Assembly: GCA_001574975.1 (NCBI GenBank)
Contig: KQ965776.1
Coordinates: forward strand, 62,001-126,000
DNA length: 64,000 nucleotides
Reading direction: 5' to 3'
From: Gonapodya prolifera JEL478
Lineage: Eukaryota > Monoblepharomycota > Monoblepharidomycetes > Monoblepharidales > Gonapodyaceae
The translations under genes and the position numbers were made by a program. Under the pieces are notes generated by a model, which made no database searches, was not told the origin of the DNA, and worked only from the letters and a program-made list of their open reading frames with translations. Of the stretch, positions 47,473-47,986 are shown one piece after another (the stretch's first letter is position 1; each line of letters begins with the position of its first letter).

Positions 47473-47986
47473 TCATCGCGCCTCAAATTGTACCACTGGT
47501 GTCACAAGCATGCAGCTCTGTTAGTGGTTCAACGGTAAGTAAAACTTCTGTGAATCGGCTCACTTCGCTTCGTCCGCTTCTTGTACATGATCCTGTCCAC
47601 CCAAGAGTGAAGATTTTTAAATATGAGAAAAGGCAACTTCCACTTTGTCACCACACTTCCTTTACCTGTACCCGCAGTTGGTGCAGCGAATGGGTTCTTT
47701 AGGTTTCAGCTCATTATCGGCACCTTCAAAGGTTGCAAGCACCATCGAAGGCAGGAGAGGCCAGCACGAGCAAGAGACAGAGGATTAAGAGTCTGGCATT
47801 CAGTAGTAGAGCTATTGGAAACTTACCACATTCTGTCGGTGCGGTAGCAGCCCGGCAAAGAAATATTCCACGAGTTCAACAGAAGACCTTCAGCACTCCA
47901 GATGAGATAGGTAGCAAGTAAGAACGCCCACCACCACAAACGTAGAGAATCGGCTCATTCTGCGGTCTGCGAGTGCCGTGGTCCAT
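47473..47986 (-). CDS. RPB12: RNA polymerase I/II/III shared subunit RPB12 (RPABC4), with a 6-nt microexon
   Basis: Zinc-ribbon subunit shared by all three nuclear polymerases. I read five exons: 47932-47986, 47827-47832 (six bases, AATGTG on the coding strand), 47666-47723, 47564-47592 and 47473-47495. The introns are 99, 103, 73 and 68 nt with GT..AG ends. The 171-nt coding sequence gives 56 residues: [18 protein letters not shown], then [14 protein letters not shown], then [18 protein letters not shown] and VQFEAR. Both CxxC pairs (CGEC and CTNC) and the invariant [18 protein letters not shown] end are restored exactly. Omitting the microexon loses the second zinc Cys and the frame. The conserved ends and phases make the model strong. 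Its start is 181 bp from the divergent ferrochelatase start. Confidence 0.9.

What the first reader, a model, noticed from the sequence alone, without database searches (positions are those of the whole stretch)
47473..47986. RPB12 gene carries a 6-nt microexon that codes the second zinc cysteine
The five-exon model uses an internal exon of only six bases (47827-47832) between introns of 99 and 103 nt. Only with this exon do both CxxC zinc pairs and the reading frame appear, and the 56-residue product is then canonical from end to end. Microexons this short are rarely annotated in fungi, and gene finders usually miss them. Here a universally essential polymerase subunit depends on one, so the organism must splice it faithfully.
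Basis: partly seen in the sequence, partly recalled or inferred. Interest (0 to 1): 0.85.

Follow-up and report, generated by a model that had tools for sequence, protein, structure and literature searches.

The report
RPB12 gene with six-base internal exon
A fungal gene for a small subunit shared by the RNA polymerases appears to be split so that a separate exon of only six bases supplies one of its four zinc-holding cysteines; the tiny exon is very probably real, but such exons are a known feature of fungi and another gene in this genome seems to need an even shorter one.

Summary
On the minus strand, exons 47932-47986, 47827-47832 (AATGTG), 47666-47723, 47564-47592 and 47473-47495 join into a 56-residue RPB12. 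The microexon supplies Cys20 and parts of codons 19 and 21.

Protein sense alone is weak proof: 281 of 3000 shuffles of the gap also offered a model restoring both zinc pairs, but only 4 of 3000 with consensus splice sites. Scored without the protein, the six bases rank first of 16 candidates; 0 of 25 long control introns score as high.

Corrections: the reading frame does not need it (skipping leaves an in-frame 54-residue protein); yeast lacking the matching cysteine is reported temperature-sensitive, not dead (PMC2680338); exons of 1, 6 and 8 nt are already published in fungi. New here: an unidentified distant eukaryote shares the positions of introns 1 and 4 but lacks 2 and 3, so the microexon most simply arose when an intron landed six bases after an old one; and this genome's Rac1-like gene needs a 4-nt exon. 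New member of a known kind; no transcript was seen.

The parts
47932..47986 (-). RPB12 exon 1 (55 nt), ATG at 47986, ends after the first base of codon 19
47833..47931 (-). intron 1 (99 nt, GTGGGC...CGACAG), codon 19 phase 1; position shared with L003
   Evidence: donor at the 8th, acceptor at the 43rd percentile of 145 census introns
47827..47832 (-). exon 2, the 6-nt microexon AATGTG: last two bases of codon 19 (Glu), codon 20 (Cys), first base of codon 21 (Gly)
47724..47826 (-). intron 2 (103 nt, GTAAGT...TTGAAG), codon 21 phase 1; absent from L003
   Evidence: donor at the 52nd, acceptor at the 29th percentile of 145
47666..47723 (-). exon 3 (58 nt), codes the second zinc pair (Cys34, Cys37)
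47593..47665 (-). intron 3 (73 nt), codon 40 phase 2; absent from L003
   Evidence: donor and acceptor both at the 6th percentile of 145
47564..47592 (-). exon 4 (29 nt)
47496..47563 (-). intron 4 (68 nt), codon 50 phase 1; position shared with L003
47473..47495 (-). exon 5 (23 nt), ends with the stop codon

Best explanation
An ordinary functional RPB12 gene whose mRNA is assembled from five exons, one of them a constitutive 6-nt microexon. Each flanking GT-AG intron is probably recognised as a unit (intron definition), so the exon needs no room for enhancers of its own. Inclusion completes CxxC...CxxC, so that the zinc ribbon can fold. The microexon most simply arose when a new intron settled six bases downstream of an old one (codon 19, phase 1). 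Shown here: the gene structure, the uniqueness of the model, splice-site quality, the single copy found, and shared positions of introns 1 and 4 with one distant eukaryote. Inferred: splicing in the cell, constitutive inclusion, intron definition, and the order of intron gain.
For: Exact five-exon RPB12; 1 of 558 models has the zinc motif; consensus-site models in 4 of 3000 shuffles; first of 16 candidates in the gap without use of the protein, 0 of 25 control introns as good; the 6-nt exon in 6 of 6 spliced-alignment runs; skip product loses 14 Pfam bits, 65.2 to 51.2; one locus in the assembly; L003 shares introns 1 and 4 and lacks 2 and 3; a 4-nt exon in a Rac1-like gene and internal exons of 14, 18 and 22 nt in three other genes of the same genome.
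Against: No transcript data. 281 of 3000 shuffles also yield some motif-restoring model and 20 of 2000 an equally good internal-exon candidate. The exon-1 donor is weak (8th percentile of 145; 6th of 78) and so, in the better-matched subset, is the exon-3 acceptor (8th of 78). Introns 1, 2 and 3 have no YTRAY 8-60 nt before the acceptor, as 49 of 78 reference introns do. The order of gain rests on a single outgroup.
Confidence: 0.88

Rival explanations
1. The microexon is regulated: inclusion gives the 56-residue subunit, skipping an in-frame 54-residue subunit with a broken zinc ribbon, used as a switch.
For: Skipping is in frame and meets no premature stop; the outer sites that skipping would join, the exon-1 donor and exon-3 acceptor, are below the median; a regulated microexon is described in Trichoderma Xlr2 (PMC11121469, abstract and introduction).
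Against: The microexon's own sites are near the median (43rd and 52nd percentile); the skip intron would be 208 nt, a length reached by 9 of 145 census introns; nothing here shows two isoforms.
Confidence: 0.05
2. The six bases are not used: most mRNA skips them and the fungus lives with a 54-residue RPB12 that has three zinc cysteines.
For: The skip model is open and keeps 51.2 Pfam bits; loss of the second cysteine is reported as conditional, not lethal, in yeast (PMC2680338).
Against: The second cysteine is invariant in the 5 sequences aligned; a well-placed exon with good sites codes exactly the missing residues.
Confidence: 0.03
3. The locus is a decaying copy and the working RPB12 lies elsewhere.
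For: The assembly is in 207 contigs and may be incomplete.
Against: All exons are intact with GT-AG introns; no other match by protein at E 0.001, by DNA at E 0.01, or above the Pfam cut-off (where four weaker matches stay below it). These searches score only the best candidates.
Confidence: 0.02

Closest known systems
Microexons of Phanerochaete chrysosporium P450 genes (PMC1184071, passages; 8-nt case in PMC12940212)
   Same: Basidiomycete protein genes with internal exons as short as 6 bp, some inside conserved motifs
   Different: P450 genes, not a polymerase subunit; in the passages read they are tied to possible alternative splicing
One-nucleotide exon of Fusarium CYP621A (PMC12940212, parts 1 and 2 of 3)
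   Same: A tiny exon needed to rebuild a conserved motif, and one that gene models miss
   Different: 1 nt; skipping breaks the frame; supported there by reads and 20 orthologs, neither of which is available here
Xlr2 microexon of Trichoderma virens (PMC11121469, introduction and passages)
   Same: Fungal microexon that decides whether a zinc-binding domain is complete
   Different: Glucose-regulated switch in a transcription factor; here nothing shows regulation
4-nt exon of the Rac1-like gene in the same genome (L073)
   Same: Internal microexon between short GT-AG introns (110 and 62 nt) inside a conserved motif (GKTCLL)
   Different: Shorter, and skipping it shifts the frame

Membership tests
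RPB12 / RPABC4 / ABC10-alpha | PF03604 zinc ribbon with CxxC...CxxC | tested here: met
   65.2 bits against a cut-off of 24; motif in 1 of 558 models
RPB12 / RPABC4 / ABC10-alpha | Full-length similarity to solved RPB12 chains, including the basic C-terminal end | tested here: met
   query residues 6-56 of 56 aligned, E 2.8e-21
RPB12 / RPABC4 / ABC10-alpha | Incorporation into RNA polymerases I, II and III | not testable with these tools
   needs biochemistry
Spliceosomal microexon | Internal exon of 30 nt or less between GT-AG introns of workable length | tested here: met
   6 nt between 99 and 103 nt, both GT-AG; census median 68 nt, 37 of 145 introns of 99 nt or more
Spliceosomal microexon | Splice sites better than chance without use of the protein | tested here: met
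   first of 16 candidates; 20 of 2000 shuffles and 0 of 25 control introns as good
Spliceosomal microexon | Inclusion in mRNA | not testable with these tools
   no RNA data held
Regulated microexon switch | Condition-dependent inclusion and skipping | not testable with these tools
   only the coding possibility of an in-frame skip is shown
Microexon born by intron duplication (introner-like) | Flanking introns alike, or repeated in the genome | tested here: not met
   introns 1 and 2: 113 of 300 shuffles align as well; the 514-bp gene matches only itself in the genome

The most novel reading that the evidence does not exclude
The microexon acts as a built-in gauge of splicing capacity or temperature. 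Skipping is in frame and meets no premature stop, so nonsense-mediated decay would not clear it; it removes the very cysteine whose loss is reported to make yeast temperature-sensitive (PMC2680338), in the zinc finger that contacts U1-70K of the U1 snRNP in the mammalian Pol II-U1 complex (PMC8624252 passage). A fall in U1 or splicing capacity would then yield polymerases with a loosened U1 contact: a feedback between splicing and transcription through one six-base exon.
Probability: 0.03. Interest if true: 0.85.

Novelty: new member of a known kind. Interest (0 to 1): 0.36.

Why it matters
It is a compact test case for annotation: a 56-residue protein in five exons, the shortest of six bases, in a widely conserved gene. 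Because the skip is in frame, an automatic model would pass a frame check and still lack a zinc cysteine. An old intron beside an apparently newer one gives a simple route by which microexons arise, and the 4-nt exon in the Rac1-like gene suggests that a systematic count in intron-rich fungi would find more of them inside conserved motifs.

Tried and rejected
Second RPB12 copy: protein, DNA and Pfam searches of the own genome give only this locus. Intron duplication as source of the microexon: introns 1 and 2 are not alike. Models without an internal exon: of 89, 11 stay open and none has the zinc motif. Relatives: viral-contig scans with P0001, A1 and the exon-3 alignment A2 confirmed none; patterns of the first two partly cross intron positions of this gene, so they could have missed genes of like structure. 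Fungal identity: hydrophobin and STE3 families gave no match, with no control ringing, so they say nothing; Zn_clus gave 63 matches, a family that I recall as almost wholly fungal. The species was not identified; 'intron-rich basidiomycete' is a guess. An AAG acceptor after both microexons looked notable when AAG was 4 of 78 but is 17 of 145 in the whole census, so it is not pressed. Bacterial-type promoter and terminator patterns beside the gene: none, uninformative in a eukaryote. Papers: nine of ten searches used. 'Microexon' with 'RPB12' returned one review whose two matching passages do not describe such an exon; that is all that stands behind 'not found in print'. PMC3447762 was read for mini-exon passages only.

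Full report
What is there. On the minus strand of the window, between 47986 and 47473, lies a five-exon gene: 47932-47986 (55 nt), 47827-47832 (6 nt, AATGTG), 47666-47723 (58 nt), 47564-47592 (29 nt), 47473-47495 (23 nt), with introns of 99, 103, 73 and 68 nt, all GT-AG. The CDS of 171 nt encodes 56 residues that are RPB12 (RPABC4, ABC10-alpha): PF03604 at 65.2 bits against a cut-off of 24, best PDB chain an RPABC4 of 58 residues at E 2.8e-21. The six bases complete codon 19 (Glu), give all of codon 20 (Cys) and begin codon 21 (Gly).

How strong is the inference. I listed every GT-AG model from exon 1 to exon 3 with no or one internal exon of 1-60 nt: 558 models, 74 open to the end, 1 with the RPB12 zinc motif. 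That is not decisive by itself: in 281 of 3000 dinucleotide shuffles of the gap some model also restored the exact motif, because tiny exons are easy to find. With a consensus donor and a pyrimidine-AG acceptor at the internal exon only 4 of 3000 did. I therefore scored splice sites without the protein, with matrices from introns of the same genome. Of 16 internal-exon candidates in the 208-nt gap the AATGTG exon is first, with 14.6 bits against 3.9 for the next. As good a candidate appears in 20 of 2000 shuffles and in 0 of 25 census introns of 120 nt or more.

Against. The exon-1 donor GTGGGC lies at the 8th and the exon-3 acceptor at the 29th percentile of 145 introns; against the 78 introns of better-matched genes they lie at the 6th and 8th. 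Intron 3 is weaker still at both ends. Introns 1, 2 and 3 lack a YTRAY motif 8-60 nt before the acceptor, which 49 of 78 reference introns have. No transcript was available.

Six is a multiple of three: skipping leaves an open 54-residue protein...YVCGGADN..., without Glu-Cys, still with 51.2 Pfam bits. Retaining intron 1, 2 or 3 instead truncates the protein; retaining intron 4 replaces its end. The essentiality argument is also softer than stated: PMC2680338 (12 of 24 passages) reports, citing Rubbi et al. 1999, that in yeast only the first cysteine is essential for viability and the other three give temperature-sensitive strains; another passage of that paper says that mutants of the last two showed no phenotype. 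The skip product also shortens the loop between the cysteines, which may be worse; that was not tested.

Copy number and organism. The held assembly (47.56 Mb, 207 contigs) has one RPB12 locus by protein, by DNA and by family (five matches at E 1 or less, only this one above the cut-off). Zn_clus with 63 matches fits a fungus, from recalled knowledge of that family. The species was not identified.

Origin. The one genome-contig scan gave 6 loci, of which I examined 3. One, L003, filed under a Euryarchaeota MAG, is a eukaryotic piece: from an assumed ATG it carries an RPB12 of 56 residues with two GT-AG introns (PF03604 62 bits), beside a phenylalanyl-tRNA synthetase core with an FDX-ACB domain and an RPB9-like frame. 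Its introns sit in codon 19 phase 1 and codon 50 phase 1, the positions of introns 1 and 4 here; it has none at codons 21 or 40. The simplest reading is that introns 1 and 4 are old and that intron 2 was added six bases after intron 1, leaving the microexon between. Loss in L003 cannot be excluded with one outgroup. Introns 1 and 2 are not copies of each other.

Is it special in this genome? I aligned 30 loci of conserved genes, of 33 fetched: 145 introns, median 68 nt, 37 of 99 nt or more, 9 of 208 nt or more; 115 internal exons, 4 of them of 30 nt or less. The loci include paralogs of equal structure and some matches of only 42-55% identity, so the counts are rough. The four are 22 nt in RPB10, 18 nt in an ARF1-like gene, 14 nt in an alpha-tubulin-like gene, and 4 nt, TTTG, in a Rac1-like gene (L073). 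The 4-nt exon was found with two queries at four penalties each (8 of 8); skipping it shifts the frame, and no single GT-AG or GC-AG intron that I tried restores the motif. It ranks first of 8 candidates in its gap without the protein, with 2 of 2000 shuffles as good. So the RPB12 microexon is one of several in this genome and not the shortest.

How it most likely works. Short introns in fungi are commonly thought to be recognised as units; PMC8624252 (passages) sets this out and notes a need for Prp40 by exons too small to hold enhancers. Under that scheme the six bases need only the two fair sites that flank them (43rd and 52nd percentile). That the RNA is spliced so in the cell is inferred, not shown.

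What is known. Fungal microexons are in print: 6 bp as the shortest exon in Phanerochaete P450 genes (PMC1184071, passages); 1 nt in Fusarium CYP621A with reads, and 8 nt in Phanerochaete CYP5141A1 (PMC12940212, parts 1 and 2 of 3); a regulated one in Trichoderma Xlr2 (PMC11121469, introduction and passages), whose authors call the characterisation of fungal microexons limited. A search for 'microexon' with 'RPB12' returned one review whose matching passages do not describe such an exon. I file the finding as a new member of a known kind.

Noticed in passing
L073 (G000:C11:223800-225700, minus strand): A Rac1-like GTPase gene seems to need a 4-nt exon (TTTG) between introns of 110 and 62 nt, inside the GKTCLL motif; skipping it shifts the frame.
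   Followed up: partly
window 47987-48058: RPB12 (minus) and a ferrochelatase gene (plus, ATG at 48059, second exon 34 nt) have start codons only 72 bases apart, which suggests a shared two-way promoter.
   Followed up: partly
L003 (PBDU01000016.1): A contig filed under a Euryarchaeota MAG is eukaryotic: RPB12 with two GT-AG introns, beside a phenylalanyl-tRNA synthetase with FDX-ACB domain and an RPB9-like frame.
   Followed up: partly
L076 (G000:C16:443200-444500): RPB10, another small polymerase subunit, begins with exons of 15 and 22 nt by the spliced alignment.
   Followed up: no
G000 contigs C32, C150, C47, C81, C116, C48, C85: Histone H3 and H4, Ran and actin-related genes occur in near-equal copies on different contigs, and as an inverted pair on C47: segmental duplication or retained haplotypes; RPB12 is single.
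   Followed up: no
window 45017-45889, minus strand: Part of a glycosyltransferase family 90 gene (PF05686, 64.8 bits).
   Followed up: no
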